Assembly (NCBI RefSeq): GCF_965363235.1
Contig: NC_134846.1
Location: forward strand, 74,064,724 to 74,128,723
Source: Mytilus galloprovincialis
Lineage: Eukaryota > Mollusca > Bivalvia > Mytilida > Mytilidae
DNA length: 64,000 bases
Direction of reading: 5' to 3'
Part shown: piece after piece, positions 38,222-64,000 of the stretch
Numbering within the stretch: the first letter of the stretch is position 1
Layout of the letters: every line of letters begins with the position of its first letter
Notes under the pieces: model-generated
The model's database searches: none
Seen by the model: only the letters and a program-made list of their open reading frames with translations
Told to the model about the DNA's origin: nothing
Translations under genes and position numbers: made by a program

Positions 38222-41148
38222 ACCTAGCCAATTAAGTATTAAATATATCACCTGACCAATAAAGTATTAAATATATCATACCTGGACTAATTAGTTTTTT
38301 TTAACACAGGTATACTACCTTTTACTTTATACATAGACTGATGAGATTATCTAAACATCGGTTAACTACCTTATACTTTGTACCTGGACTAATTAGATTA
38401 CATGAACATTGGTAAACTACCGAATTCTTTATACCTAGACTGATTAGATTACATTAACAGTGGTAAACTACCGAATACTTTATACTTGGACTGATTAGAT
38501 TACATGAACATTGGAAAACTACCGAATACTTTATAGTTTTTTGGTAGGGTGCGTGTTGTTTATTCTTTAGTTTTCTATGTTGTGTCGTGTGTGCTGTTGT
38601 TTGTTTGTCTTTTTCACTTTTAGCCATGGCGTTGTCAGTTTGTTTTAGATTTATGAGTTTGACTGTCCCTTTGGTATCTTTCGTCCCTCTTTTATAGCTG
38701 GACTGATTAGATAACATGAACAGTGGTAAACTACCGAATACTTTATACCTGGACTGATTAGATTACATGAACATTGGTAAACTACCGAATAATTCATACC
38801 TGGACTGATAAGATTACATGAACATTGGTAAACTACTGAATACTTAATACCTGGACTGAATAAAAAAAAAAGATCATTGGTAAACTACCGAATACGTTAT
38901 ACCTGGACTGATTAGATTACATGAACATTGGTAAGCTACCAAGTACTTTAAACCTAGACTGATTATATTACATGAACATTAGTGAACTACCGAATACTGT
39001 ACACCTGGACTGATTATATTACAGGAACATTGGTAAACTACCGAATACTTTATACCTAGACTGATTAGATTACATTAACAGTGGTAAACTACCGAATACT
39101 GTATACCTTGACTGATTAGATTACATGAACATTGGTAAACTACTTGACACTTTATACCTGGACTGATTAGATTACATGAACATTATTACACTACTGAATA
39201 TTGTATACCTGGAATGATTAGATTACATGAACATTAGTAAACTACCGAATACTGTATACCTGGACTGATTATATTACATGAACAATAGTAAACTACCGAA
39301 AACTGTATACCTGGACTGATTAGATTACACGAACATGGGTAAAACTACCGAATACTTTATACCTGGACTGATTAGATTACATGAACATTAGTAAACTACC
39401 GAATACTGTATACCTGAACTGATTAGATTACATTAACATTAGTAAATTACTTGACACTTTATACCTGGACTGATTAGATTACACGAACATTGGTAAACTA
39501 CCGAATACTTTATACCTGGACTGATTAGATTACATGAACATTATTACACTACTGAATATTGTATACCTGGACTGATTAGATTACATGAACATTAGTAAAC
39601 TACCGAATATTGTATACCTGGACTGATTATATTACATCAACAATAGTAAATTACCGAAAACTGTATACCTGGACTGATTAAATTACACGAACATTGGTAA
39701 AACTACCGAATACTTTATACCTGGACTGATTATATTACATGAACATTAGTAAACTACCGAATACTGTATACCTGAACTGATTAGATTACATTAACATTAG
39801 TAAATTACTTGACACTTTATACCTGGACTGATTAGTTTACATGAACATTATTACACTACTGAATATTGTATACCTGAACAGATTATATTTCATGAACAAT
39901 ACAAAAACTACCGAAAACTGTATACCTAGACTGATTAGATTACACGAACATGGGTAAAACTACCGAATACTTTATACCTGGACTAATAAGATTACATGAA
40001 CATTAGAAAACTATCGAAAACTGTATACCTGGACTGATTATATTACATGAACATAATTACACTACCGAATACTGTATACCTGGTATGATAAGATTACACG
40101 AACATTGGTAAACTACCGAATACTTTATACCTGGACTAATTAGATTACATGAACATTAGAAAACTATCGAAAACTGTATACCTGGACTGATTAGATTACA
40201 TGAACATTATTACACTACCGAAGACTGTATACCTGGTCTGATTAGAATACATGAACATTAGTAAACTACCGAATACTGTATACCTGGACTGATTATTTTA
40301 CATGAACAGTAGTAAATTACCGAAAACTGTATACCTGGACTGATTAGATTACATGAACATTAGTAAACTACCGAATACTGTATACCTGGTATGATTAGAT
40401 TACACGAACATTGGTAAACTATCGAATACTTTATACCTGGACTGATTATATTACACGAACATTGATAAACTACCGAATACTTTATACCTTGACTGATTAT
40501 ATTACATGAAGATTGGTAAACTACCGAATACTTTATACCTAGACTGATTTGATTACATTAACAGTGGTAAACTACCGAATACGTTTTACTTGGACTGATT
40601 ACATTACATGAACATTGGTAAATTACCGAATACTTTAAACCTGGACTGATTAGATTACATGAACATTGGTAAACTACCGAATATTTTATACCTTGACTGA
40701 TTAGATTACATGATCATTGGTAAACTACCGAATACTTTAAACCTGAACTGATTAGATTACATGAACATTGGTAAACTACCGAATAATTTATACCTGGACT
40801 GATTATATTACATGAACATTGGTAAATTACCGAATACTTTAAACCTGGACTGATTAGATTACATGAACATCGGTAAACTACCGAATACTTTATACCTATA
40901 CTGATTAGATTACATTAACAGTGGTAAACTACCGAATACTTTATACTTGGACTGATTAGATTACATGAACATTGGTAAACTACCGAATAATTTATACCTG
41001 GACTGATTAGATTACATGAACATTGGTAAACTACTTTACACTTTATACCTGGATTGATTAGATTACATGAACATTGTTAAACTACCTGATACTTTATACC
41101 TAAACTGATAAGTTGACATGAACATTGATAAACTACCTTATACCGTGT
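38222..41148. repeat. Minisatellite, 51-bp unit, about 57 copies
   Basis: A diverged tandem array of a unit beginning CTGGACTGATTAGATTACAT, with CATTGGTAAACTACCGAATA inside and CTTTATAC at the end. Copies differ by several substitutions and 1-base indels, so the array is old. The left part is interrupted by an unrelated insertion at 38535-38697. Confidence 0.85.
38535..38697 (-). repeat. Dispersed repeat inserted in the 51-bp minisatellite
   Basis: Reverse copy of the GATACCAAAGGGACA family (read on the minus strand: AAAGGGACAGTCAAACTCAT, AACTGACAACGCCATGGC). Array sequence resumes on its right side with CTGGACTGATTAGAT. Confidence 0.6.
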
Positions 41149-49144: not shown

Positions 49145-52100
49145 CTGCAAGCACAAGAAACAACCAATCAGTGACATCATGAACATAGATTTATTGTAAA
49201 TGCAACCAAATTACTGTAAATTATTGCTTGCATTTATTATTGTGATTTAATAACTTTAGACCAAAATGCAATTTTAATTTTAGGGATTTTGAAAAAATCC
49301 AGTTTAATTTATCTAAAAAAAATTAAAAATGCCGGTTTAACTTATTGCAATTATAACCCTGTTGCAATTTTCGCAATGATTCATAGATGCCAACCCCCTT
49401 TTGACACAATCAGTAACAAACTATCAAATTTTCCGTATTTTTGAAAAGTTTTCAGTAATCATTCAAAAACGTGCATTTACCAATAAAAATTACTGACGAG
49501 TGCTTGCAAAGTGATGTGCAGTAACATATTTTGTTAAACATTGTAGTATGTATTCCATTCATTGATTGTTCGTACATTTTGGTTTTGTCAAGGAGAAGTA
49601 GTGATTGGGGGAAAGCTACTTCATAAATTGCAAGTTTGCCTCTTCGGAAGTCAGTTAGTTACCCAACAATAGGTCGATAACTCCCGAGAAACCGGAAGCA
49701 TTATATTGGCGTTTTCTAAATACCGGACCAAGACGGAAAAGTAATGATAAAAATCTGTGGTTTACAAAATTGAACGGCGATGATTGGGAATCGGTAACAA
49801 TTCAACTTTGACTGTAATAGCGTAGTTTTTATCGCAAAATTGGAAAAATTACGGAAAAATCATAATGGTTGGTATCTATAAATGATTTCTGAATTTACAA
49901 AACCTGCTTTATACATAAATTGTCTCATTACATGTTACATATTAAGTAAATTTGTCATTCTATATTTAGTATTTGATTTATTATCTGGAAACACAGATTT
50001 CTGACAGACTGCCATATATATATATACCCTACTTTGTAGTGTGGGGTAGAAATTATTTAAAAATTCAAACATACCTTTTCTGTTTTGAAATTTTGTTGTA
50101 AAACACTTTTCTGATCAGGAGTAAGCCCTTCACAATCTGATAGGAACTGATGTAGGAAGTCATTATAAAATCTTTCAAAATCTACACATGCCATATTGTG
50201 AATAGTCACAGTTATCTCCTCTTGAAGAAGGTCATGTGATCTATGTACAAGAACTTGTAATAATACATTGAGAAACTGTGTCAACATTCCTTGTGCAAAG
50301 ATTGTCTGAAAAAGAAAATTAACATTTAAACAATACAGATAAACAAAAAATCACGAAAAATCCTTCTTATATCAGTCGAGGTATTTATATAAAAAACAAG
50401 AATAACAAGAATGTGTCCATAGTACACGAATGCCCCACTCGCACTATCATTTTCTATGTTCAGTGGACCATGAAATTGGGGTCAAAACTATAATTTGGCA
50501 TTAAAATTAGAAAGATCATATCATGGGGAACAAGTGTACTAAGTTTCAAGTTGATTGGACTTCAACTTCTTCAAAAACTACCTTGACCAAAAACTTTAAC
50601 CTGAAGCGGACGGACGAACGGAGGCACAGATGGACGGACGGACGAACAGAGGCACAAACGGACGAATGGAGGCACAGACCAGAAAACATAATGCCCCTCT
50701 ACTATCGTAGGTGGGGCATAAAAATATGTCTTTGGTGTAAATTTGGATATATACTGTAAAAGCAGAAATTTTCGTGGAGGATTTAATTTCGTTTATTTCG
50801 TGGAAAGAATATATCCACGAAATTAAAACCCCCACGAAAATTTAACTTCCATATAAAACCACTTCCAGTTTAAGGAAACCACGAAATTAAATCCCCATGA
50901 AATCTTACAGAGAGACAAAACCACAAAATTTTAACCCCACGAAAATTAATGTTTCTACAGTATATATATATAATTGGAGTTTAAAATAAAAATAATTAGA
51001 GTAAGTAAGAGCTGTAAATATATTGTGGTCATGAAGTTAACAAGAGTTATTATTACTTTCCTATTGGTAGCATTTTTTGAACAACCTTACTAAAGGAGTA
51101 CACTCTTTAAAATAACTATTATCTTAGTGGAATTTTAATAAATAAAACATTTTCAGTAAATCAAGTGGAATAATATAATTATTATTAAGTACAAATATGT
51201 AAGCTTGGAAAAGGTTACTTTATACACATTTAATGCATTTTTACTTTTATAAAAATCCCTATTCATTTTTAAACAGATCAAGCATTAGGTATTATGCATA
51301 AAATACCAAGTAAATATCACTTAAATTTCAAATTAGAATGAAGGAAGTCAAAGGGAAATACATGTCTAATCCATATTAAGAAGAAGTAATTCCTTAATAA
51401 AAACATTAAATACAAATAGGAAGACTCACTACATCATCATTACCACTCTGCAATAGCCCTTAATGTAAATTACACAAAGCTTAGTGTTTATATATTTCAA
51501 TGTATTACCTTACTGTAGAGTTTCCATTTGAAGTTGAGATTTTCTAATGATTCTAAATTCTGTCTGAAGACATCAATATCTGGCTGCAGAAAAGATTGGC
51601 CATATGACTGAAATAAGAAAACAATAAATATTTGTCTGCAGAAAAGACAGGCCATATAACTTATATGACAAAACATTAATTATTGACTTGTTAAGATGTG
51701 CTCTATGACTAAAATCTTACATCAGTACTGTAAATAAAATGTCCTATCAAAATTAGCACTCTAAGCTTTTGACTTGAATAATTTTTATACTTTTAAATCA
51801 AATGCCTTGCAGAATCTTTTCTAAACAAAGGAATAGTTGCCTGTAGCAAAATTCTGTTTCACTGGGAAAGGAGTAAGTCGGTAAGGGCCATATTTGGCCC
51901 CGATTTTAAAGTTCAATGTTACAAAATAAAAATTGTTTTAAGTTGACTTAAAGACATGTGAGAAAGTTAAATAGAACTATTACTGTCGAATTTTTATTTC
52001 TTAATTGTTTATTTTTACATCCCAAATAGGTCAAAATAAGAGCCAAATTTAGGACCAGGAAACAGAGCGCAGGCGTCGACAAATTAAATATTCAAACTGG

Positions 52101-55100
52101 ACATGAAAATGTTATTATGAACATTATGTTCAAAGATCTTTTTTGTCGACGTTGTTTCTTGTCCAATAACCAATGAAAATTTACCCATTAATGAGTACTA
52201 TTTGTGATGCATGAACAAAATGCAGGAATGTAAATTTTCAACAAAAAGGCTTATTTCTTATCTAGTCAAAGCATTAACTATGATCCATTGTGATATTGGT
52301 CAATAAATCCTCAAATTTAAGCTAAATAAGGGGCCATTTAAGGGCCTTATTGAACCTACTCCTTTGCACACACAAATCTATGTCCACAGAAAAATCTTGT
52401 ATTCCTTTTCAGTTATGTTGATGTTTATAAACTTTTGGCCTAAGCTTTACTGTTTTCTTCAAATATTTTTTATTCCCTTTGCATCATTGTATCTCCATTG
52501 ATGTTTGGATTTTGAACATGTGGTCTTTGACATAGCTGTTGTAAGAAGAACATGCAATTTCGTTAAGAATCATGAACAGCTGAGTGTTCACTCTCATGTT
52601 TTTTCAACTTTTATAAGGTCGAACTTGCTGAACATTTTTCTGAAGTAACCCTATTTTGAACTACACAATAAGATGAGTTACCTGTAAAACTGATGTGAAC
52701 TGTTGAACATTCTCGACTTGTTCAGGCTCGTTGTTCATCTTCATTAGTACGTTACTTTTAAAGAAATATCTCCAGTTATGAACCAGAAGTTCATGAAGTA
52801 GATTGTACAGGACTAGTTTCATATCTGGTGATGGTCTCTGTAACATAAAAACTCATCTTGTACTAAATATTGTCATGTTTTGTTTCAAATCACAAAATTT
52901 TCTTGAATTTGTCCTATCAAAGTTGCATCATATCAATTACTACAGGCATGATGAAATACACTTAAAAAAACAAATCTGGTGGGCAATATTTTAGAAACAT
53001 GGATCTACTATGGAAAAAGTTGATTGAAAATATATGTAGTAAGCATATGTCTTCAATATCCCCATTTATTTTCTCAAATCCTTCAGAACCACATAACAAC
53101 TTCATGGTGTTATAGCTTCCAATAGTTTGTTACTGTAGTCTTACATATTTTAACTTTCTTTTTAGTCTCTTATTTATTTACATTTGGGGAAAAAATACTT
53201 TTTTATGATATGAAACATTAAAATAAAAGTTCATTTTTTCATGATTACTACATCTTTCATGATTACTAATCTGAATAATACAGTACCTGAGCAATGATAG
53301 GGTAGATTTGATCTATACATATGGATATAATACAGTACCTGAGCAATGATAGGGTAGATTTGATCTATACATATGGATATAGTACAGTACCTGAGCAATG
53401 ATAGGGTAGATTTGATCTATACATATGGATATAATACAGTACCTGAGCAATGATAGGGTAGATTTGACCTATACATATGGATATAGTACAGTACCTGAGC
53501 AATGATAGGGTAGATTTGATCTATACATATGGATATAATACAGTACCTGAGCAATGATAGGGTAGATTTGACCTATACATATGGATATAATACAGTACCT
53601 GAGCAATGATAGGGTAGATTTGATCTATACATATGGATATAATACAGTACCTGAGCAATGATAGGGTAGATTTGATCTATACATATGGATATAATACAGT
53701 ACCTGAGCAATGATAGGGTAGATTTGATCTATACATATGGATATAATACATTACCTGAGCAATGATAGGGTAGATTTGATCTATACATATGGATATAGTA
53801 CAGTACCTGAAATGATAGGGTAGATTTGACCTATACATATGGATATAATACAGTACCTGAGCAATGATAGGGTAGATTTGATCTATACATATGGATATAA
53901 TACATTACCTGAGCAATGATAGGGTAGATTTGATCTATACATATGGATATAGTACAGTACCTGAGCAATGATAGGGTAGATTTGATCTATACATATGGAT
54001 ATAATACAGTACCTGAGCAATGATAGGGTAGATTTGACCTATACATATGGATATAATACAGTACCTGAGCAATGATAGGGTAGATTTGATCTATCCATAT
54101 GGATATAGTACAGTACCTGAGCAATGATAGGGTAGATTTGATCTATACATATGGATATAATACAGTACCTGAGCAATGATAGGGTAGATTTGATCTATAC
54201 ATATGGATATAATACAGTACCTGAGCAATGATAGGGTAGATTTGATCTATACATATGGATATAATACATTACCTGAGCAATGATAGGGTAGATTTGATCT
54301 ATACATATGGATATAGTACAGTACCTGAAATGATAGGGTAGATTTGACCTATACATATGGATATAATACAGTACCTGAGCAATGATAGGGTAGATTTGAT
54401 CTATACATATGGATATAATACATTACCTGAGCAATGATAGGGTAGATTTGATCTATACATATGGATATAGTACAGTACCTGAGCAATGATAAGGTAGATT
54501 TGATCTATACATATGGATATAGTACAGTACCTGAGCAATGATAGGGTAGATTTGATCTATGCATATGGATATAATACATTACCTGAGCAATGATAGGGTA
54601 GATTTGATCTATACATATGGATATAATACATTACCTGAGCAATGATAGGGTAGATTTGATCTATACATATGGATATAGTACAGTACCTGAGCAATGATAG
54701 GGTAGATTTGATCTATACATATGGATATAGTACAGTACCTGAGCAATGATAGGGTAGATTTGATCTATACATATGGATATAGTACAGTACCTGAGCAATG
54801 ATAGGGTAGATTTGATCTATACATATGGATATAATACATTACCTGAGCAATGATAGGGTAGATTTGATCTATACATATGGATATAATACATTACCTGAGC
54901 AATGATAGGGTAGATTTGATCTATACATATGGATATAATACAGTACCTGAGCAATGATAGGGTAGATTTGACCTATACATATGGATATAATACATTACCT
55001 GAGCAATGATAGGGTAGATTTGATCTATACATATGGATATAGTACAGTACCTGAGCAATGATAGGGTAGATTTGATCTATACATATGGATATAGTACAGT

Positions 55101-58100
55101 ACCTGAGCAATGATAGGGTAGATTTGATCTATACATATGGATATAATACATTACCTGAGCAATGATAGGGTAGATTTGATCTATACATATGGATATAATA
55201 CAGTACCTGAGCAATGATAGGGTAGATTTGATCTATACATATGGATATAGTACAGTACCTGAGCAATGATAGGGTAGATTTGATCTATACATATGGATAT
55301 AGTACAGTACCTGAGCAATGATAGGGTAGATTTGATCTATACATATGGATATAATACATTACCTGAGCAATGATAGGGTAGATTTGATCTATACATATGG
55401 ATATAATACATTACCTGAGCAATGATAGGGTAGATTTGACCTATACATATGGATATAGTACAGTACCTGAGCAATGATAGGGTAGATTTGATCTATACAT
55501 ATGGATATAGTACAGTACCTGAGCAATGATAGGGTAGATTTGATCTATACATATGGATATAATACAGTACCTGAGCAATGATAGGGTAGATTTGACCTAT
55601 ACATATGGATATAATACAGTACCTGAGCAATGATAGGGTAGATTTGATCTATCCATATGGATATAGTACAGTACCTGAGCAATGATAGGGTAGATTTGAT
55701 CTATACATATGGATATAATACAGTACCTGAGCAATGATAGGGTAGATTTGATCTATACATATGGATATAATACAGTACCTGAGCAATGATAGGGTAGATT
55801 TGATCTATACATATGGATATAATACATTACCTGAGCAATGATAGGGTAGATTTGATCTATACATATGGATATAGTACAGTACCTGAAATGATAGGGTAGA
55901 TTTGACCTATACATATGGATATAATACAGTACCTGAGCAATGATAGGGTAGATTTGATCTATACATATGGATATAATACATTACCTGAGCAATGATAGGG
56001 TAGATTTGATCTATACATATGGATATAGTACAGTACCTGAGCAATGATAAGGTAGATTTGATCTATACATATGGATATAGTACAGTACCTGAGCAATGAT
56101 AGGGTAGATTTGATCTATGCATATGGATATAATACATTACCTGAGCAATGATAGGGTAGATTTGATCTATACATATGGATATAATACATTACCTGAGCAA
56201 TGATAGGGTAGATTTGATCTATACATATGGATATAGTACAGTACCTGAGCAATGATAGGGTAGATTTGATCTATACATATGGATATAGTACAGTACCTGA
56301 GCAATGATAGGGTAGATTTGATCTATACATATGGATATAGTACAGTACCTGAGCAATGATAGGGTAGATTTGATCTATACATATGGATATAATACATTAC
56401 CTGAGCAATGATAGGGTAGATTTGATCTATACATATGGATATAATACAGTACCTGAGCAATGATAGGGTAGATTTGACCTATACATATGGATATAATACA
56501 TTACCTGAGCAATGATAGGGTAGATTTGATCTATACATATGGATATAGTACAGTACCTGAGCAATGATAGGGTAGATTTGATCTATACATATGGATATAG
56601 TACAGTACCTGAGCAATGATAGGGTAGATTTGATCTATACATATGGATATAATACATTACCTGAGCAATGATAGGGTAGATTTGATCTATACATATGGAT
56701 ATAATACAGTACCTGAGCAATGATAGGGTAGATTTGATCTATACATATGGATATAGTACAGTACCTGAGCAATGATAGGGTAGATTTGATCTATACATAT
56801 GGATATAGTACAGTACCTGAGCAATGATAGGGTAGATTTGATCTATACATATGGATATAATACATTACCTGAGCAATGATAGGGTAGATTTGATCTATAC
56901 ATATGGATATAATACAGTACCTGAGCAATGATAGGGTAGATTTGACCTATACATATGGATATAATACATTACCTGAGCAATGATAGGGTAGATTTGATCT
57001 ATACATATGGATATAGTACAGTACCTGAGCAATGATAGGGTAGATTTGATCTATACATATGGATATAATACATTACCTGAGCAATGATAGGGTAGATTTG
57101 ATCTATACATATGGATATAATACAGTACCTGAGCAATGATAGGGTAGATTTGATCTATCCATATGGATATAATACATTACCTGAGCAATGATAGGGTAGA
57201 TTTGATCTATACATATGGATATAGTACAGTACCTGAGCAATGATAGGGTTGATTTGATCTGTACATAAGGATATAACACAGTACCTGAGCAATGATAGGG
57301 TTGATTTGATCTATACATATGGATATAATACATTACCTGAGCAATGATAGGGTAGATTTGACCTATACATATGGATATAATACAGTACCTGAGCAATGAT
57401 AGGGTAGATTTGATCTATACATATGGATAAAATACAGTACCTAAGCAATGATAGGGTAGATTTGATCTATACATATGGATATAACACAGTACCTGAGCAA
57501 TGATAGGGTAGATTTGATCTATACATATGGATATAACACAGTACCTGAGCAATGATAGGGTAGATTTGATCTATACATATGGATATAACACAGTACCTGA
57601 GCAATGATAGGGTAGATTTGATCTATACATATGGATATAATACAGTACCTGAGCAATGATAGGGTAGATTTGATCTATACATATGGATATAATACATTAC
57701 CTGAGCAATGATAGGGTAGATTTGATCTATACATATGGATATAATACAGTACCTGAGCAATGATAGGGTAGATTTGATCTATACATATGGATATAATACA
57801 GTACCTGAGCAATGATAGGGTAGATTTGATCTATACATATGGATATAATACAGTACCTGAGCAATGATAGGGTAGATTTGATCTATACATATGGATATAA
57901 TACATTACCTGAGCAATGATAGGGTAGATTTGATCTATACATATGGATATAATACAGTACCTGAGCAATGATAGGGTAGATTTGATCTATACATATGGAT
58001 ATAACACTTGGTATGAATGACTTGAATGCTGAACCTGGTTCCTGTACCACTAATTCTAATATCTTTAAAAATCTACAAGATACAACCAAGACAATCTTTA

Positions 58101-61100
58101 TATCATTTCAAAAAGGTATTATATGCTATCCTGATCCAATCAATTATCTGTTAGAAATGGAACTTGGCATCTTTAATGTAAGGTGCTTATGCAAAATCTA
58201 AAATCTATGTGATAGATAATAACTGTAGAACATTCATAAACATTTCAAACATTGCATATAGTTTATATCAAAATCAGGCTGCAGATGAATAAAAACTTTA
58301 AAATCCTATATATTTAATTATATTTTTTTCATGGCAGTATAAAAATATTCTTACTTTTCTACAACTCTGTGGGCAGCACTACTTTCTTGGAAAATTGTCT
58401 CTGCCAACTGTTGTCTGAAATGATAAATAGATTGATGTTTATATCAAAATTACAAAATGACACACCCATCTAAACCTCCAGTGAATGACGCACCCATCTA
58501 AACCAGGAGTGAATGACACAACCATCTATACCTAGACAGAATGACACAGCTCTCTTTACCTTAAGTGACTGACACACCCATCTTAACCTTGAGTGAATGA
58601 CACACCCATCTATACCTTGAGTAAATGACACAGCTCTCTACATCTTGAGTGAATGACACAGCTCTCTACACCTTGAGTGAATGACACAGCTCTCTACACA
58701 TTGAGTGACTGACACAGCTCTCTACACCTTGAGTGAATGACACAGCTCTCTACACCTTGAGTGAATGACACACCCATCTATACCTTGAGTAAATGATACA
58801 TACATGTGTACATTGAAGGAATGACAATGCATCTTTACCTTTAGAGACTGATGCATACATTCACACAACTGACTATTGTTACAGGGATAAAATAAATAAC
58901 TTACTGTGTAAAAAGTGACATAAATGTCGTAATTGTCTGTTGAGTGAATGCAACACCCATCTGTACTCTCAATCCTTGGAACAGGGATAAAAAGAAACTC
59001 ATCATTGCTTCTATAACTTCTACCTCTGAAACAAATTTGTCAGTTTTTTCATAAACATGTTGTACAAAAGATGTTTCAATTCTATTTCAAATAGACTTAT
59101 AATATAATCAGCATTGTATATATTTGTCCTTTAGGTTTGTGGAGTTAAATAAGTGATGTGGAAAGAAACCATCAAACTAAATAGAAATTAAATATGTGCA
59201 GTGATATAATTGTCCTGATTCAAAAACAATTCAATTCCTGATATGACTTTTAAGGGCTAAATTGTTTCTCACTAGCTAAAGAAAAATTAAAACCAGATGC
59301 CCTGCAGGGCGCAGCTTTATACGACCGCAGAGGTTGAACCCTGAACGGTTGGGGCAAGTATGGACACAACATTCAAGCTGGATTCAGATCTAAATTTGGA
59401 TTGTGATTAAATAGTTGACACAGCATAGGTTTCTGACACAGAATGAATGTGGTCTAATGAACTTAAAATATTTTTTTTGCCTTTGAGCAATTCACTATGC
59501 TGTTGAAAAAATGTTTGAAGAAATTTTCTTTTTATTTATGAAATCTGAAATAAGAAAAATTTAACCCCCCCCTCATTTTTTTTTACATCCCCCTTTCCCT
59601 TTTTCTAAAACTGATCTCAATTCAAATTTCTAATGGAGTTTGCAACAATAACTACTCATTTAAATACATCATAAAATAAATTTAAAACTACTATTCTGGA
59701 CAAAGAAAGATAACTCCAATTGAAAATTTCTTGCTACTGCACAATATTGTGCAATTAGATATTTCTTGCTATTGCGCAATACTGTGCAATTGAAAATATT
59801 TGCTATTGCACAATACTGTGCAATTAAAGATTTCTTGCTATTGCGCAATAGTGGCAATTGAAAATTTCTTGCTATTGCACAATACTGTGCAATTGAAGAT
59901 TTCTTGCTATTGCTGAATACTGTGCAATTGAAAATTTCTTACTATACTTTATGTAATAATTTTGGATCCTGATTTGAAACAACTTGAAAACTGGGCCCAT
60001 AATCAAAAATCTAAGTACATGTTTAGATTCAGCATATCAAAAAAGCCCAAGAATTCAATTTTTGTTAAAATCAAACTTAGTTTAATATTAGACCCTTTTG
60101 ACTTTAATGTAGACCAATTTGAAAACGGGACTAAAAATTAATAATCTACATACAGAGTTAGATTTGGCATATCAAAGAACCACAATTATTCAATTTTTGA
60201 TGAAATCCAACAAAGTTTAATTTTGGACCCGGATTTGGACCAACTTGCAAACTGGGCCAATAATCAAAAATCTAAGTACATTTTTAGATTCAGCATCTCA
60301 AAGAACCCCAAGGATTCAATTTTTGTTAAAATCAAACTAAGTTTAATTTTGGACCCTTTGGACCTTAATGTAGACCAATTTGAAAACGAGACCAAAAATT
60401 AAGAATCTACATACACAGTTAGATTTGGCATATCAAAGAACCCCAATTATTCAATTTTTGATGAAATCAAACAAAGTTCAATTTTGGACCCTTTGGACCC
60501 CTTATTCCTAAACTGTTGGGACCAAAACTCCCAAAATCAAAGCCAACCTTCTTTTTATGGTTATAAACCTTGTGTTTAAATTCCATAGATTTCTATTTAC
60601 TTATACTAAAGTTATGGTGCGAAAACCAAGAATAATGCTTATTTGGGCCCCTTTTTGGCCCTTAATTCCTAAACGGTTGGGACCTCAACTCCCAAAATCA
60701 ATCTCAACCTTCCTTTTGTGGTATAAACCTTGTGTTTAAATTTCATTGATTTCAATTTACTTATACTAAAGTTATTGTGCGAAAAACAAGAATAATGCTT
60801 ATTTGGGCCCTTTTTTGGCCCCTAATTCCTAAACTATTGGAACCAAAACTCCCAAAATCAATCCCAACCTTCCTTTTGTGGTCATTAACCTTGTGTCAAA
60901 ATTTCATAGATTTCTATTTACTTAAACTAAAGTTATAGGGCGAAAACCAAGAAAATGCTTATTTGGGCCCTTTCTGGCAACTAATTCCTAAAATGTTGGG
61001 ACCAAAACTCCGAAAATCAATCCCAACCTTCCTTTTGTGGTCATAAACCTTGTGTTAAAATTTCATAGATTTCTATTTACTTTTACTAAAGTTAGAGTGC

Positions 61101-63664
61101 GAAAAACTAAAAGTATTCGGACGACGACGACGACGCAGACGACAACGCCAACATCATACCAATATACGACCAAAAAATTTTCAATTTTTGCGGTCGTATA
61201 AAAATTAGAACCGAAGATTATTTAAAATTCTTAAAACAACTGACTATAGTTTGACTTACAAATTATGCAGTTTTGCTCATTGCTGAAGGCCTCATCTTGA
61301 CCTATAGTTTATTTCTTCTACACCATTGGGTCTCTGATGTAAACTCCTCTTATTGGAAATCATACCACAACTTCTTTTTAAATATAAGTATTTTGGCATA
61401 TACAAATATAACAATACAACCATTCTATTAGATGTTTTATGTTTTACATACAATAAAAGTATACTTGATGTCTTTTTTGTAACAAATTCAAACCTAGTAT
61501 CTTAAAATAAACATATGACATGTTATTGATGTGTCACATACTATAGTAACCATTATCACATGAATTACCTGGTGGATGCAGATATATTGGAAACAGTGCT
61601 ATTGATACTTGGATGACTTCTTGTAATGACTGATAACAGATCTGTTTACTTTTCACAACTTCTCCAGAAACAGCCTCAATCCAATCCTGGAATATACTCA
61701 ATGCCTTTCTTATCACTTGTTTACCTATAATAAAAGAGAATATAAAATCTTCTAAGAAAGGTATGAGTATTGAGCATGCTTTTATACATTGATAACTAGA
61801 AACTGTTCAATTTAGTTCATATTTAAGTTTCATACAACTTTTGTTATTTGCTATAAATATTTTAAAAATACTTTGACTTCATCCATGGCGTCTTGCAAAT
61901 AATGGAGATGTTGGTCATACATCAATGGGCAGCAACCCAATGACATAAATAACAGAAAGAAATAAAGAGGCAAACGCCTTCAAACACGGACAAACGAGAA
62001 AGCCACAAGGGTCAAAATAATATCAGTGCAGTTTTTTAATTGTAATTACTAATATGTTACTCAGTAATTTTGCAGCATGGTATATTTGTGATGTGCACAT
62101 TTGTTATTCAAAATTTACAACATTATAATTGTTGTCATGTATTTCTGTGAGTGAAAAGTATTTTATTCAGTTGAACAATTGTAGATCCATAACTTTGAAA
62201 TTGCTTTATTGAAAAAAAGTGTAGTTAATTATTTTTGCTCACAGCAGCATGTGATAAAATCAATGAGCACTTACTTGTAGAATCTTCCCTCAGATGTTTG
62301 TGATTACCAAGTTCAGACTTCAATAGGAGCACGTTCCTAGCTATCTGTTGTACATAAATCTGGTGATGTGAAGCTCTCTCTGTCCAGTTCTGACCAGCAT
62401 CAGACTCATTTGGCCATGGAAGAATTAAGGCATTTGACATTGATCTGTAGACAAGAAGTTGTACCTGTTGATGCAAAATTAATATCCTTCATTTAATTGA
62501 TGGACCTAAAAAATGTTTTCATCAGATTATGCTTTTTTCACTTTATTGTGGTTAAATCTTAGTAAATATGTTATTATGGAATTTTTTCGTGTGTGTATTA
62601 TTTTTTATATGGTTCTAATGTTCAAGGTTATTCTGAATCTAAGCCACCAAATCATTGATGCGGAATGCTTGGTGGAGAAGCAGTAAATACCTGTCCTTGG
62701 TCTGGGATCAAACCATAACCTCCAGCACTTGAAGTGACCACCTTGAAACCACCAAATATTTTATGCTTGTTCAGACTAAAGAGAATAAATAGAAATTGAA
62801 CATAGGTTTTTATCTATGTAGATGTGGTTTTTAAAATGTTTCACTTTTAGCAGATTATAAAACAAGTATTATATTTATTACAATTATTTATACTGACCTC
62901 TGTTGTTAGACTGTCCAGTGTACCTTGTGTTACAGATGATAACAAATTCTGTATACATGGAAGCTGGAGCAGAAAGGCAGGTTTTACTGTAGTTGTTATG
63001 GATAAAACAACATGTGCTGCAGAATGTACTATTCTTTCTGGTACCTAAAATATACCAACATGAAATGTAGGTCAGTGTGACACCAATTTAAAAAAAATAA
63101 CATTATCATGAAAATAGTAAACGTGATAAATTATCATCTATGTAGTGCTGTAGATTAATGAGAAATGGAGTTAATAAACTAGTCACATTTTTTATATAAT
63201 ATAAAATCACAGTAGTCACCAATTCATTTTCCATACTGATTTCAAAATTTGAAATAACTGCTGAAATTTAACTATTTTTAATCTAACTTTGCTAACTTAT
63301 CCAATACATAAAGGGCTTCAAATGGTAGCAATATATGTTACCTTTGCACAAAGTTTAATATTACAAGCTATGAGAATGTAACAAGGATCTTGACAGTGTC
63401 CTGTAATGGTATTTTTCTGCTATATAAAGTCAACTTGTCAGGTAGTTTGGACTGTAAATTATTTTCATATGACCTTTAAATATTTCAAGGAAACTCAACC
63501 CTTGTGTTATTACCTGACTAGAAAATAATGGTGTAACAGCTTCTAACAATGTAGTCATCATAGATATAAACTTCTGCTTCATCTGTGGTTCTTTGTTAAC
63601 TTCATTGTAATACTGTGATAACCAGTGACAAAATGCTTTAACTGATGCTATGGCTTGTGCTTGT
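49043..63664 (-). CDS. XPO6: Exportin-6, C-terminal part (12 exons), partial at the right edge of the window
   Basis: Exportin-6 is an importin-beta-family receptor that exports profilin-actin complexes from the nucleus with RanGTP. Twelve exons join in frame to give the last 524 residues. The vertebrate protein is about 1,125 residues, so roughly the second half is present and the rest lies beyond 64000. Recognition rests on blocks shared with human XPO6: LILPWPN, SKQICYQSLQE, SLFQGLRVQMG, FLKILELVVQEPG, IDQIYPIIAQ, RPSPDMK, NWRYFFKS, YGQSFLQPDID, NVLLQVLVHRSHDLLQEEI and RLVNDLRYYR. All are HEAT-repeat helices with no catalytic residues. The intron after the exon ending at 57961 contains the amplified exon-end minisatellite. 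Individual exons are listed separately. Confidence 0.95.
49376..49886. mobile_element. TIR element of about 510 bp in the last XPO6 intron
   Basis: The ends ATGATTCATAGATGCCAACC and GGTTGGTATCTATAAATGAT are inverted with three mismatches. No coding capacity is visible. Confidence 0.6.
50075..50305 (-). CDS. XPO6: XPO6 exon with the NVLLQVLVHRSHDLLQEE block
   Basis: 77 codons, phase 0 at both ends, TIFAQGMLTQFLNVLLQVLV through DQKSVLQQNFKTEK. This is the most conserved part of the protein visible here, nearly identical in order to the human C-terminal region. Confidence 0.96.
50398..50724. repeat. Second copy of the ATGCCCC/GGGGCAT element
   Basis: Same orientation and blocks as the copy in myosin intron 26: AATGTGTCCATAGTACACGA, then CTACCTTGACCAAAAACTTT, a GACGGACGAACGGAGGCACA tract and a GTAGGTGGGGCAT end. 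Confidence 0.7.
50750..50963. mobile_element. TIR element with TACTGTA ends in an XPO6 intron
   Basis: The left end TACTGTAAAAGCAGAAATTT and the right end AATTAATGTTTCTACAGTA are imperfect inverted copies. The interior repeats CACGAAATTAAA-type blocks in both orientations. Confidence 0.55.
51509..51607 (-). CDS. XPO6: XPO6 exon (YGQSFLQPDID block)
   Basis: 33 codons in phase 0, SYGQSFLQPDIDVFRQNLES then LENLNFKWKLYSK. Two donors are possible (GTAAGG, and GTAATA four bases downstream). The downstream one keeps frame with the next exon and matches the human spacing, so I used it. Confidence 0.93.
51867..52365. mobile_element. TIR element of about 500 bp in an XPO6 intron
   Basis: The left end AAAGGAGTAAGTCGGTAAGG and the right end AAGGGCCTTATTGAACCTAC followed by TCCTTT are inverted copies of about 35 bp with several mismatches. 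The inner GGCCATATTTGGCCCC and GGGGCCATTTAAGGGCC blocks are also related. Confidence 0.6.
52682..52837 (-). CDS. XPO6: XPO6 exon (RPSPDMK...NWRYFFKS block)
   Basis: 52 codons in phase 0, RPSPDMKLVLYNLLHELLVH and the NWRYFFKSNVLMKM block through FTSVLQ. It is the next exon after the one ending IYPIIAQ, 5.1 kb upstream in the gene. The intron between them holds the 52-bp array. Confidence 0.95.
53277..58003. repeat. Minisatellite of about 91 x 52 bp derived from an XPO6 exon end and its splice donor
   Basis: A highly homogeneous tandem array. On the minus strand each unit runs TATATCCATATGTATAGATC, then AAATCTACCCTATCATTGCT, CAG, then GTACTGTAT. The first 43 bases equal the last 43 bases of the XPO6 exon at 57961-58072, and the next 9 equal the start of its intron. 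The highest-coordinate unit is the real exon end. Variants (TAATACATT, TAGTACAGT, GACCTATA, a 2-base deletion, GATAAGG) recur in fixed order, showing higher-order repetition. Confidence 0.95.
57961..58072 (-). CDS. XPO6: XPO6 exon whose 3' end seeded the minisatellite
   Basis: 112 bases completing a lysine codon and then FLKILELVVQEPGSAFKSFI with PSVISICIDQIYPIIAQ, matching human FLKILQVVVQEPG...YPIIAE. The donor CAG|GTACTG begins at 57960. Reading past it, the frame hits a stop in the third array unit, so splicing at this first donor is required for a full-length product. Confidence 0.96.
58355..58414 (-). CDS. XPO6: XPO6 exon (QQLAETIFQESSAAHRVVE)
   Basis: A 60-base exon starting in phase 2 and ending in phase 2, equivalent to human EQLAESILHEGSTGCRVVEK. 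Confidence 0.93.
58455..58865. repeat. Minisatellite, 28-bp unit, about 14 copies, in an XPO6 intron
   Basis: Diverged tandem copies of GAGTGAATGACACAGCTCTC followed by TACACCTT. The central copies are near-identical and the outer ones more diverged. Confidence 0.8.
58905..59025 (-). CDS. XPO6: XPO6 exon (SLFQGLRVQMG block)
   Basis: 121 bases, EVEVIEAMMSFFLSLFQGLR and VQMGVAFTQQTITTFMSLFT. It starts in phase 1 and ends in phase 2 before GTAAGT. Confidence 0.94.
59291..61206. repeat. 1.9 kb element with 12-bp inverted ends and several internal tandem arrays
   Basis: TATACGACCGCA (59318-59329) and TGCGGTCGTATA (61189-61200) are perfect inverted end motifs. Inside are a short array of an ATTGCACAATACTGTGCAAT type unit (59735-59945), diverged units with GGACC-TTTGGACC-TTAATGTAGACC (59960-60490), and about four units of about 160 bp with TTCCTAAACTGTTGGGACCA (60505-61100). 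A GGACGACGACGACGACGCAG tract lies just before the right end. Confidence 0.75.
61569..61724 (-). CDS. XPO6: XPO6 exon (SKQICYQSLQE block)
   Basis: 156 bases, KQVIRKALSIFQDWIEAVSG and the KSKQICYQSLQEVIQVSIAL block ending in FPIYLHPP. It starts and ends in phase 1. Human has STKSRQICYQSLQESVQVSL here. Confidence 0.95.
62275..62464 (-). CDS. XPO6: XPO6 exon (LILPWPN block)
   Basis: 190 bases, VQLLVYRSMSNALILPWPNE then SDAGQNWTERASHHQIYVQQ and further to HKHLREDST. It starts in phase 0 after TGCATCAACAG and ends in phase 1 before GTAAGT. Confidence 0.95.
62691..62741 (-). CDS. XPO6: XPO6 small exon (probable)
   Basis: 17 codons, VVTSSAGGYGLIPDQGQ, with phase 0 on both sides. The end aligns with human RLVDKAQ just before VLVCRALSN. 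The acceptor (GGTGGTTTCAAG) has a weak pyrimidine tract, so the 5' boundary is the least certain of the set. Confidence 0.6.
62898..63044 (-). CDS. XPO6: XPO6 exon (VPERIVHSAAHVVLSITTTV)
   Basis: 49 codons, phase 0 at both ends, continuing KPAFLLQLPCIQNLLSSVTQ. Equivalent to human ...TTVRPVFLISIPAVQ. The donor is GTCAGT. Confidence 0.9.
63514..63664 (-). CDS. XPO6: XPO6 exon, most upstream in the window
   Basis: 151 bases starting in phase 2 after TTTCAG, QAQAIASVKAFCHWLSQYYN then EVNKEPQMKQKFISMMTTLL and EAVTPLFSSQ. Earlier exons lie beyond 64000. Confidence 0.92.
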
Positions 63665-63863: not shown

Positions 63864-64000
63864 GGGTTCCGCGGAACCCAGTGTCTCGCCTATTTTTGCT
63901 GTAAATTGCAGACTCAACAACAATGAGGGAAAAAATCAATAAAAATATTCCTCTTGTTACATGTACTATTTTATGATTGCAAGAAAATCTAAGTCCATTT
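63864..64000. repeat. Third copy of the palindrome-ended element, cut by the window edge
   Basis: Begins with the intact palindrome GGGTTCCGCGGAACCC (63864-63879), then GTGTCTCGCCTATTTTTGCT, as in the two copies inside the myosin introns. Confidence 0.7.

What the first reader, a model, noticed from the sequence alone, without database searches (positions are those of the whole stretch)
53277..58072. An XPO6 exon end and its splice donor amplified about 91-fold into a 4.7 kb array
The 52-bp unit is not random satellite DNA. On the coding strand it is the last 43 bases of the exon encoding SICIDQIYPIIAQ plus 9 intron bases including the GT donor. The intron therefore presents about 91 near-identical copies of CATTGCTCAG|GTACTG. 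Each copy also looks like a juxtaposed 3'/5' splice site (pyrimidine-rich, CAG|GT), the form used in recursive splicing. Because 52 is not a multiple of 3 and a TAG appears in the third unit, only the first donor gives full-length protein. The gene must therefore either favour the exon-proximal donor strongly or produce many unproductive isoforms, and copy number could tune exportin-6 output.
Basis: partly seen in the sequence, partly recalled or inferred. Interest (0 to 1): 0.88.

Follow-up and report, generated by a model that had tools for sequence, protein, structure and literature searches.

The report
Exon-edge repeat array in exportin-6
In an animal's exportin-6 gene, the last 43 letters of one exon plus its splice signal are repeated in tandem 91 times into the next intron; such exon-edge repeats are known from lancelets and probably do little, but this one is unusually large and easy to test for effects on splicing.

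Summary
On the minus strand, 91 tandem units (88 of 52 bp, 3 of 50) begin inside an exportin-6 exon (58072-57961). Each unit is the last 43 exon bases plus 9 intron bases; unit 1 is the real exon end, and units 1 and 91 are identical. The gene is collinear with human XPO6 (sequence recalled). Origin from the exon is well supported: one duplication at a TTAT microhomology, then expansion. Only donor 1 of 91 gives full-length protein. New: the exon's own donor scores lowest of ten in the gene, while 26 copies, unit 2 included, score better. The kind is known: lancelet 'mirages', boundary-spanning minisatellites reported not to disturb splicing; human IFI6 is a contrary precedent. Passive tolerance is most likely; isoform control and recursive splicing are untested. 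Long minisatellites are common here. A side test found arrays bearing a donor word about five times as often as arrays bearing matched words on part of one contig, but not for an acceptor word: a lead only.

The parts
57961..58072 (-). exon g of exportin-6 (112 nt, encodes KFLKILELVVQEPGSAFKSFIPSVISICIDQIYPIIAQ with the preceding exon's last bases)
   Evidence: tblastn of recalled human XPO6, 63% over 38 aa; canonical AG/GT edges and an open frame across 11 joined exons
57952..58003 (-). unit 1 = last 43 exon bases + first 9 intron bases; identical to unit 91
53278..58003 (-). minisatellite of 91 units (88 x 52, 3 x 50 bp)
57959..57960 (-). authentic splice donor CAG|GTACTG, lowest-scoring of the 10 donors scored in the gene (3.99; the other nine 6.76-9.46)
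   Evidence: recalled human-like weight matrix
57907..57908 (-). donor of unit 2, CAG|GTAATG, higher-scoring (7.34) and out of frame
57883..57885 (-). in-frame TAG in unit 3 that ends any read-through from exon g
52838..57960 (-). intron g-h, 5123 nt; 449 nt if only one unit were present
52682..52837 (-). next exon h (RPSPDMKLVLYNLL...), phase 0 junction
55510..56443 (-). units 31-48, an 18-unit block repeated exactly as units 61-78 (53952-54885)
   Evidence: coordinates derived from the unit table
53239..53277 (-). downstream breakpoint; TTAT shared with the exon-side breakpoint
51572..51684 (-). second boundary duplication: 52-bp period, 2.1 copies across the acceptor of exon i (51607); the upstream copy reads ATAAG where the exon's acceptor reads TTCAG
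58456..58841 (-). 28-bp array in intron e-f whose unit resembles bases 58966-58940 of the adjacent exon e (24 of 27)

Best explanation
This is a 'mirage': a minisatellite seeded by a tandem duplication across an exon-intron boundary, here the donor side of one XPO6 exon. Shown from sequence: the unit is the exon end plus the start of the intron, the first and last units are identical, the breakpoints share TTAT, and a block of 18 units recurs exactly. Inferred: slippage or unequal exchange at TTAT made the first copy, and further unequal exchange expanded it to 91. The duplication leaves donor 1 joined to the intact exon and places every extra copy downstream, so all copies leave with the intron as long as donor 1, the first one transcribed, is the one used. 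The array is therefore most likely passive intron growth, tolerated rather than selected, with at most a low level of unproductive splicing to donors 2-91 that nonsense-mediated decay would remove.
For: Anatomy and terminal units. Conserved XPO6 exon, the exon pair being found only in this gene among the 8 candidates scored genome-wide. Only donor 1 of 91 is productive. Lancelet mirages in Adh3 and globins are reported not to interfere with regular splicing (PMC3087553: passages and section 16), nor Adh and TnC mirages to generate aberrant mRNAs (PMC3902484: one passage). Large minisatellites are ordinary in this genome: 3 of 20 evenly spaced 10-kb stretches of C9 hold one over 1 kb with a 30-40 bp unit, and 8.5% of those 200 kb lie in TRF arrays, against 2 of 46 XPO6 coding-exon ends (the ends of 12 N-terminal exons are approximate). 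A second, more diverged boundary duplication lies in the same gene. Three units folded as RNA show no special structure (z +2.0).
Against: No RNA was available, so use of donor 1 is inferred. Donor 1 scores lowest of the 10 donors scored, and unit 2, 52 nt away, scores within the range of the other genuine donors, which predicts competition. In human IFI6, repeat-unit donors are used (PMC4526556, one passage). Passivity is a default, not a demonstration.
Confidence: 0.7

Rival explanations
1. Splicing rheostat: downstream donors compete with the weak donor 1 and yield frameshifted or stopped, decay-targeted XPO6 RNA, so copy number and donor type tune exportin-6 output.
For: 26 of 91 units, including unit 2, have a higher-scoring donor than the exon's own; all 90 alternative donors are unproductive; IFI6 precedent.
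Against: Lancelet mirages reportedly give no aberrant mRNA. The scores come from a recalled human-like matrix. Most units (64 of 91) carry the same weak donor as the exon.
Confidence: 0.2
2. Stepwise or intra-array splicing: because every unit carries AG|GT, splicing from donor i to the AG of unit j removes whole units and regenerates a donor, so the array can collapse at RNA level without altering the protein.
For: AG|GT in 91 of 91 units. The unit's crude acceptor score exceeds those of 4 of 11 real acceptors of the gene, and 5.2% of 1346 background AGGT sites reach it; unit 41, whose sequence units 71 and 81 share, scores higher.
Against: Recursive splicing is described for very long fly introns, commonly over 40 kb, with nearly all detected segments over 1 kb (PMC6110457 passages); this intron is 5.1 kb. 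By eye I saw no good branch-point match in the unit.
Confidence: 0.06
3. Copy number is an assembly product: the array exists but its length or exact repeated blocks are mis-assembled or specific to one haplotype.
For: Exact 18-unit duplicate blocks; raw reads could not be seen.
Against: Repeated blocks are also what unequal exchange gives; 4.7 kb is within the reach of one long read; no N in the stretch.
Confidence: 0.04

Closest known systems
Lancelet (amphioxus) 'mirages' in Adh3, globins, TnC (PMC3087553, passages and section 16; PMC3902484, one passage; the original Adh paper, NAR 2002 30:2871, is not held and was seen only as a citation)
   Different: There 3 and 6 units in two haplotypes of one globin gene, with 10-72 or 150-160 bp units; here 91 units over 4.7 kb. 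The lancelet cases have RT-PCR and instability data; this one has none.
Human IFI6 (6-16) minisatellite that provides multiple splice donors (Turri 1995, title seen in reference lists; paper not held)
   Same: Tandem repeat in which units carry splice donors.
   Different: Two downstream repeat units there are used as donors, giving three mRNAs (PMC4526556, one passage); here no use is shown and the alternatives are out of frame or stopped.
Intron gain by tandem duplication of an AGGT-bearing exon segment (Rogers model; fission yeast 24-bp repeats, potato RdRp; PMC4974935 and PMC3443670, passages)
   Same: Tandem copies each carrying AG|GT.
   Different: Here the duplicated segment already contained a real donor of an existing intron, so an intron was lengthened, not created.
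Tandem repeats at exon-intron boundaries of human duplicated genes (PMC2812944, passages)
   Same: Boundary repeats linked to gene structure and alternative splicing.
   Different: There about 4 repeats of about 30 bp on average, in segmental duplications; here 91 repeats, in a gene found once.
Recursive splice sites (ratchet points) of fly introns (PMC6110457, passages)
   Same: Juxtaposed AG|GT.
   Different: Intron length, spacing and origin differ; no intermediates seen.

Membership tests
mirage (boundary-spanning minisatellite) | tandem repeat of minisatellite type | tested here: met
   91 units of 52 or 50 bp
mirage (boundary-spanning minisatellite) | unit spans an exon-intron boundary of a real gene | tested here: met
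   43 exon + 9 intron bases; exon identified by similarity to recalled human XPO6 and canonical AG/GT edges; no RNA
mirage (boundary-spanning minisatellite) | splice signals in the copies | tested here: met
   AG|GT in 91 of 91
mirage (boundary-spanning minisatellite) | homogenisation within the cluster | tested here: inconclusive
   an 18-unit block is repeated exactly at offset 30, which suggests it; but the run length was not tested against shuffles, and the same-unit fraction at that offset, 0.39, was below the highest of 1000 shuffles (0.44; mean of the shuffle maxima 0.29)
mirage (boundary-spanning minisatellite) | regular splicing undisturbed; length and somatic instability | not testable with these tools
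   needs RNA and several individuals
recursive splicing site | juxtaposed 3'/5' splice motif | tested here: inconclusive
   2.5% of 1346 background AGGT sites do as well on both crude scores, but the donor score is weak
recursive splicing site | very long intron, segments over about 1 kb | tested here: not met
   intron 5123 nt, units 52 bp; criterion from PMC6110457
IFI6-type alternative-donor minisatellite | repeat-unit donors used in mRNA | not testable with these tools
   no RNA held
exportin-6 (XPO6) | collinear full-length similarity to XPO6 | tested here: met
   23 exon matches in order on one strand to recalled human XPO6, two of them with E about 0.1; against: Pfam Xpo1 gave 13.7 bits for exons g-h, below its 22.7 cut-off, none of 7 genome-wide Xpo1 matches lies in this gene, and no convincing PDB relative

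The most novel reading that the evidence does not exclude
Splice donors are hot spots that seed minisatellites in this genome, and the donor side tolerates them because the exon-proximal donor is transcribed first, whereas on the acceptor side the wrong copy is transcribed first and is purged. XPO6 would be one large example of a genome-wide class of donor-bearing arrays that lengthen introns, some of them with copy-number effects on splicing.
Probability: 0.2. Interest if true: 0.75.

Novelty: new member of a known kind. Interest (0 to 1): 0.48.

Why it matters
Mirages were described in lancelets. My searches showed me none in a mollusc or in XPO6, but they cover only open-licence PMC text, show capped lists, and I read passages of few of the papers (for example the gastropod haemocyanin intron paper PMC7931591 was seen as a listing only). 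Ninety-one near-identical donors starting with a weak authentic one, all others out of frame or stopped, make a natural test of how a spliceosome picks the right donor, and of whether array length alters gene output. If donor-bearing arrays are a genome-wide class, they would tie minisatellite birth to intron growth.

Tried and rejected
Chance resemblance of a satellite to an exon: rejected (continuous array starting inside a conserved exon). XPO6 paralogue or processed copy: none seen; the 89-residue exon pair gave 2 matches, both in this gene (8 candidates scored), and the DNA search with 101 bases gave 87 matches, all in this array (counts are lower bounds). RNA structure hiding the donors: no sign in the three units folded (z +2.0, 197 of 200 shuffles fold at least as well). 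A premature polyadenylation signal in the array: none (0 AATAAA, 0 ATTAAA). Purifying selection on array donors: not readable from copies that are nearly identical (11 variable sites in the 88 units of 52 bp, 3 of them in the 9 intron bases; the 3 units of 50 bp were left out of that count). Solved-structure and Pfam support for XPO6 was negative or below cut-off. An exon survey with kinase loci failed because loci could not be cut.

Donor-word survey, results against as well as for. Whole-genome matches: donor words CAGGTAAG 411+498 and AAGGTAAG 748+651; non-splice words CAGATAAG 174+238, CAGTTAAG 75+131, GATGACAG 61+223; acceptor word TTTTCAGG 183+106. The same six patterns read backwards gave 410, 192, 163, 295, 476 and 121. 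By my reading of the lists, which are capped at about 100 places, distinct arrays on C1 up to 108.13 Mb are 9 and 11 for the donor words, 4, 2 and 0 for the three non-splice words, and 4 for the acceptor word; one of the 4 CAGATAAG arrays (8.95 Mb) adjoins a CAGGTAAG one and may be the same array. Donor words against the three non-splice words: binomial p 1.4e-4; match totals of 2 donor words against 8 control totals: rank test p 0.022. An earlier Poisson figure (1.6e-5 for a mean of 3, 0.002 for a mean of 5, for 13 arrays up to 123.6 Mb) is superseded. Word abundance was matched on only 324 kb (11 and 9; 9, 12, 9; 16). Against the idea: in the 13 CAGGTAAG arrays on C1 whose letters were printed the next base is T in only 2 of 13, whereas 6 of 10 XPO6 donors have T there, so many may not come from real donors. 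None of those arrays could be tied to an exon. A planned control AGCAGTAG was dropped because its abundance was not comparable (1 in the sample); GAATGGAC as its own query was not repeated, and only its total is used.
Full report
What is there. The minus strand of the window carries the 3' part of an exportin-6 gene. Eleven exons (63664 to 49043) join in one open frame with canonical AG/GT edges. Sub-threshold Pfam Xpo1 similarity for exons g-h, no Xpo1 match in this gene among 7 found genome-wide and no convincing solved relative mean that the name rests on that recalled sequence. The exon pair around the array was found only here (2 matches, both in this gene; 8 candidates scored).

The array. 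TRF finds 91.1 copies of 52 bp at 53275-58004 with 96% matches. Parsing gives 91 units, 88 of 52 and 3 of 50 bp, each with AG|GTA[AC]TGT. The first unit is exon bases 58003-57961 plus intron bases 57960-57952. Units 1 and 91 are identical over 52 bases; the flanks differ from the unit, and the two breakpoints share TTAT. The simplest history is one duplication at that microhomology, then expansion. Inside, variants at intron positions +4 (26 of 88), +8 (4), +9 (27) and exon position -26 (9) have multiplied, and units 31-48 recur exactly as units 61-78, which suggests later block duplication; the length of that run was not tested against shuffles, and the overall same-unit fraction at offset 30 was not beyond the shuffle maxima. 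Reduced to one unit the intron would be 449 nt in place of 5123.

Coding consequences. Each of the 91 donors was joined to exon h in a script: donor 1 alone gives full length, donor 2 shifts the frame and stops in exon h, and donors 3 to 91 stop at the TAG in unit 3. The matrix is a recalled human-like one, so only the order should be taken seriously. This predicts competition, which RNA would show.

How it most likely works. A duplication that spans a donor leaves the first donor on the intact exon and every extra copy in the intron. If the first donor made is the first used, the array is invisible in the mRNA. Lancelet boundary minisatellites ('mirages'), many of whose units carry AG/GT, are reported not to disturb regular splicing (PMC3087553; PMC3902484). 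The contrary precedent is human IFI6, in which two repeat-unit donors are used (PMC4526556). I put passive tolerance at 0.7 and a splicing effect at 0.2.

Recursive splicing. Any exon ending in pyrimidines and CAG|GT resembles a ratchet point. On crude scores the unit's acceptor is reached by 5.2% of 1346 background AGGT sites, and both scores together by 2.5%. The intron is far shorter than those in which fly recursive splicing is described (PMC6110457). One property is nevertheless worth stating: any splice from a donor to a later AG inside the array removes whole units and restores a donor, so it would leave no trace in the mRNA.

How ordinary it is. Of 20 evenly spaced 10-kb stretches of C9, 3 hold a minisatellite over 1 kb with 30-40 bp units, and 16,945 of 200,000 bases lie in TRF arrays (my sum). 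Of 46 coding-exon ends of this gene, 44 of them splice boundaries, 2 lie in or within 3 bp of TRF arrays (the ends of the twelve N-terminal exons are approximate), while 28% of the gene, or 14% without the big array, is array. So, in this gene, a boundary falling in an array is not more frequent than for DNA at large.

Other repeats in the same gene. The acceptor edge of exon i lies in a 52-bp duplication with 2.1 copies at 80% identity over 61 bases; the upstream copy reads ATAAG where the exon's acceptor reads TTCAG. The 28-bp array of intron e-f resembles 27 bases of the adjacent exon e (24 of 27); its score of 21 was reached by 0 of 60 dinucleotide shuffles, 0 of 400 Markov shuffles and 0 of 40 genomic stretches. 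Counting TRF arrays of 100 bp or more in the gene and leaving out those that blastn shows to be dispersed, these three remain and all are exon-related; that count was made after the fact.

A genome-wide side test. Triplets of a donor word spaced 30-60 nt mark donor-bearing arrays. CAGGTAAG and AAGGTAAG give 909 and 1399 matches; CAGATAAG, CAGTTAAG and GATGACAG give 412, 206 and 284; the acceptor word TTTTCAGG gives 289; the six patterns read backwards give 410, 192, 163, 295, 476 and 121. Distinct arrays on C1 up to 108.13 Mb, counted by eye from capped lists, are 9 and 11 against 4, 2 and 0, and 4 for the acceptor word; for the donor words against the three non-splice words p is 1.4e-4, and for match totals against eight control totals 0.022. 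Two AAGGTAAG arrays 28 kb apart at 16.2 Mb may be related, and one CAGATAAG array adjoins a CAGGTAAG one. Against the idea: only 2 of 13 visible CAGGTAAG arrays have T as next base, fewer than real donors would suggest; no array could be tied to an exon; the words were few and chosen by me. It is a lead, not a result.

Novelty. The structure is a known kind, the mirage, in a gene where my searches showed none (open-licence PMC only, capped lists), with many more units than the lancelet globin cases.

Noticed in passing
51572-51684: 52-bp tandem duplication (2.1 copies, 80% identity over 61 bp) across the acceptor of XPO6 exon i; the upstream copy reads ATAAG where the acceptor reads TTCAG.
   Followed up: partly
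58456-58841 and 58940-58966: 28-bp intronic array whose unit resembles 27 bases of the adjacent exon e; 0 of 60 and 0 of 400 shuffles and 0 of 40 genomic stretches reach its score.
   Followed up: partly
59700-61206: Dispersed element of about 1.5 kb carrying 35-, 135- and 160-bp tandem repeats, 92% identical to L011 3092-4594 and L031 7471-8973; bivalve Helitron-like elements with central repeats come to mind (recalled, untested).
   Followed up: partly
26187-27630; 63984-64000 and on into L009: 192-bp repeat blocks found again in L009 (two places) and L023, apparently dispersed.
   Followed up: no
38278-41137: 51-bp array (about 48 copies in its main part) whose consensus on the minus strand reads CAG|GTAT; not tied to an exon.
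   Followed up: no
whole genome, C1 4.8-123.6 Mb: At least 13 distinct arrays on C1 with CAGGTAAG in consecutive units; by eye some units read like acceptor plus mini-exon plus donor (C1 at 108.30 and 70.79 Mb).
   Followed up: partly
C1 114.72/114.75, C4 18.17/18.19, C4 25.99/26.00, C4 66.15/66.17, C5 20.72/20.73 Mb: Pairs of CAGTTAAG matches in opposite orientation, about 11-25 kb apart, at several places: perhaps a large element with repeat-bearing inverted ends.
   Followed up: no
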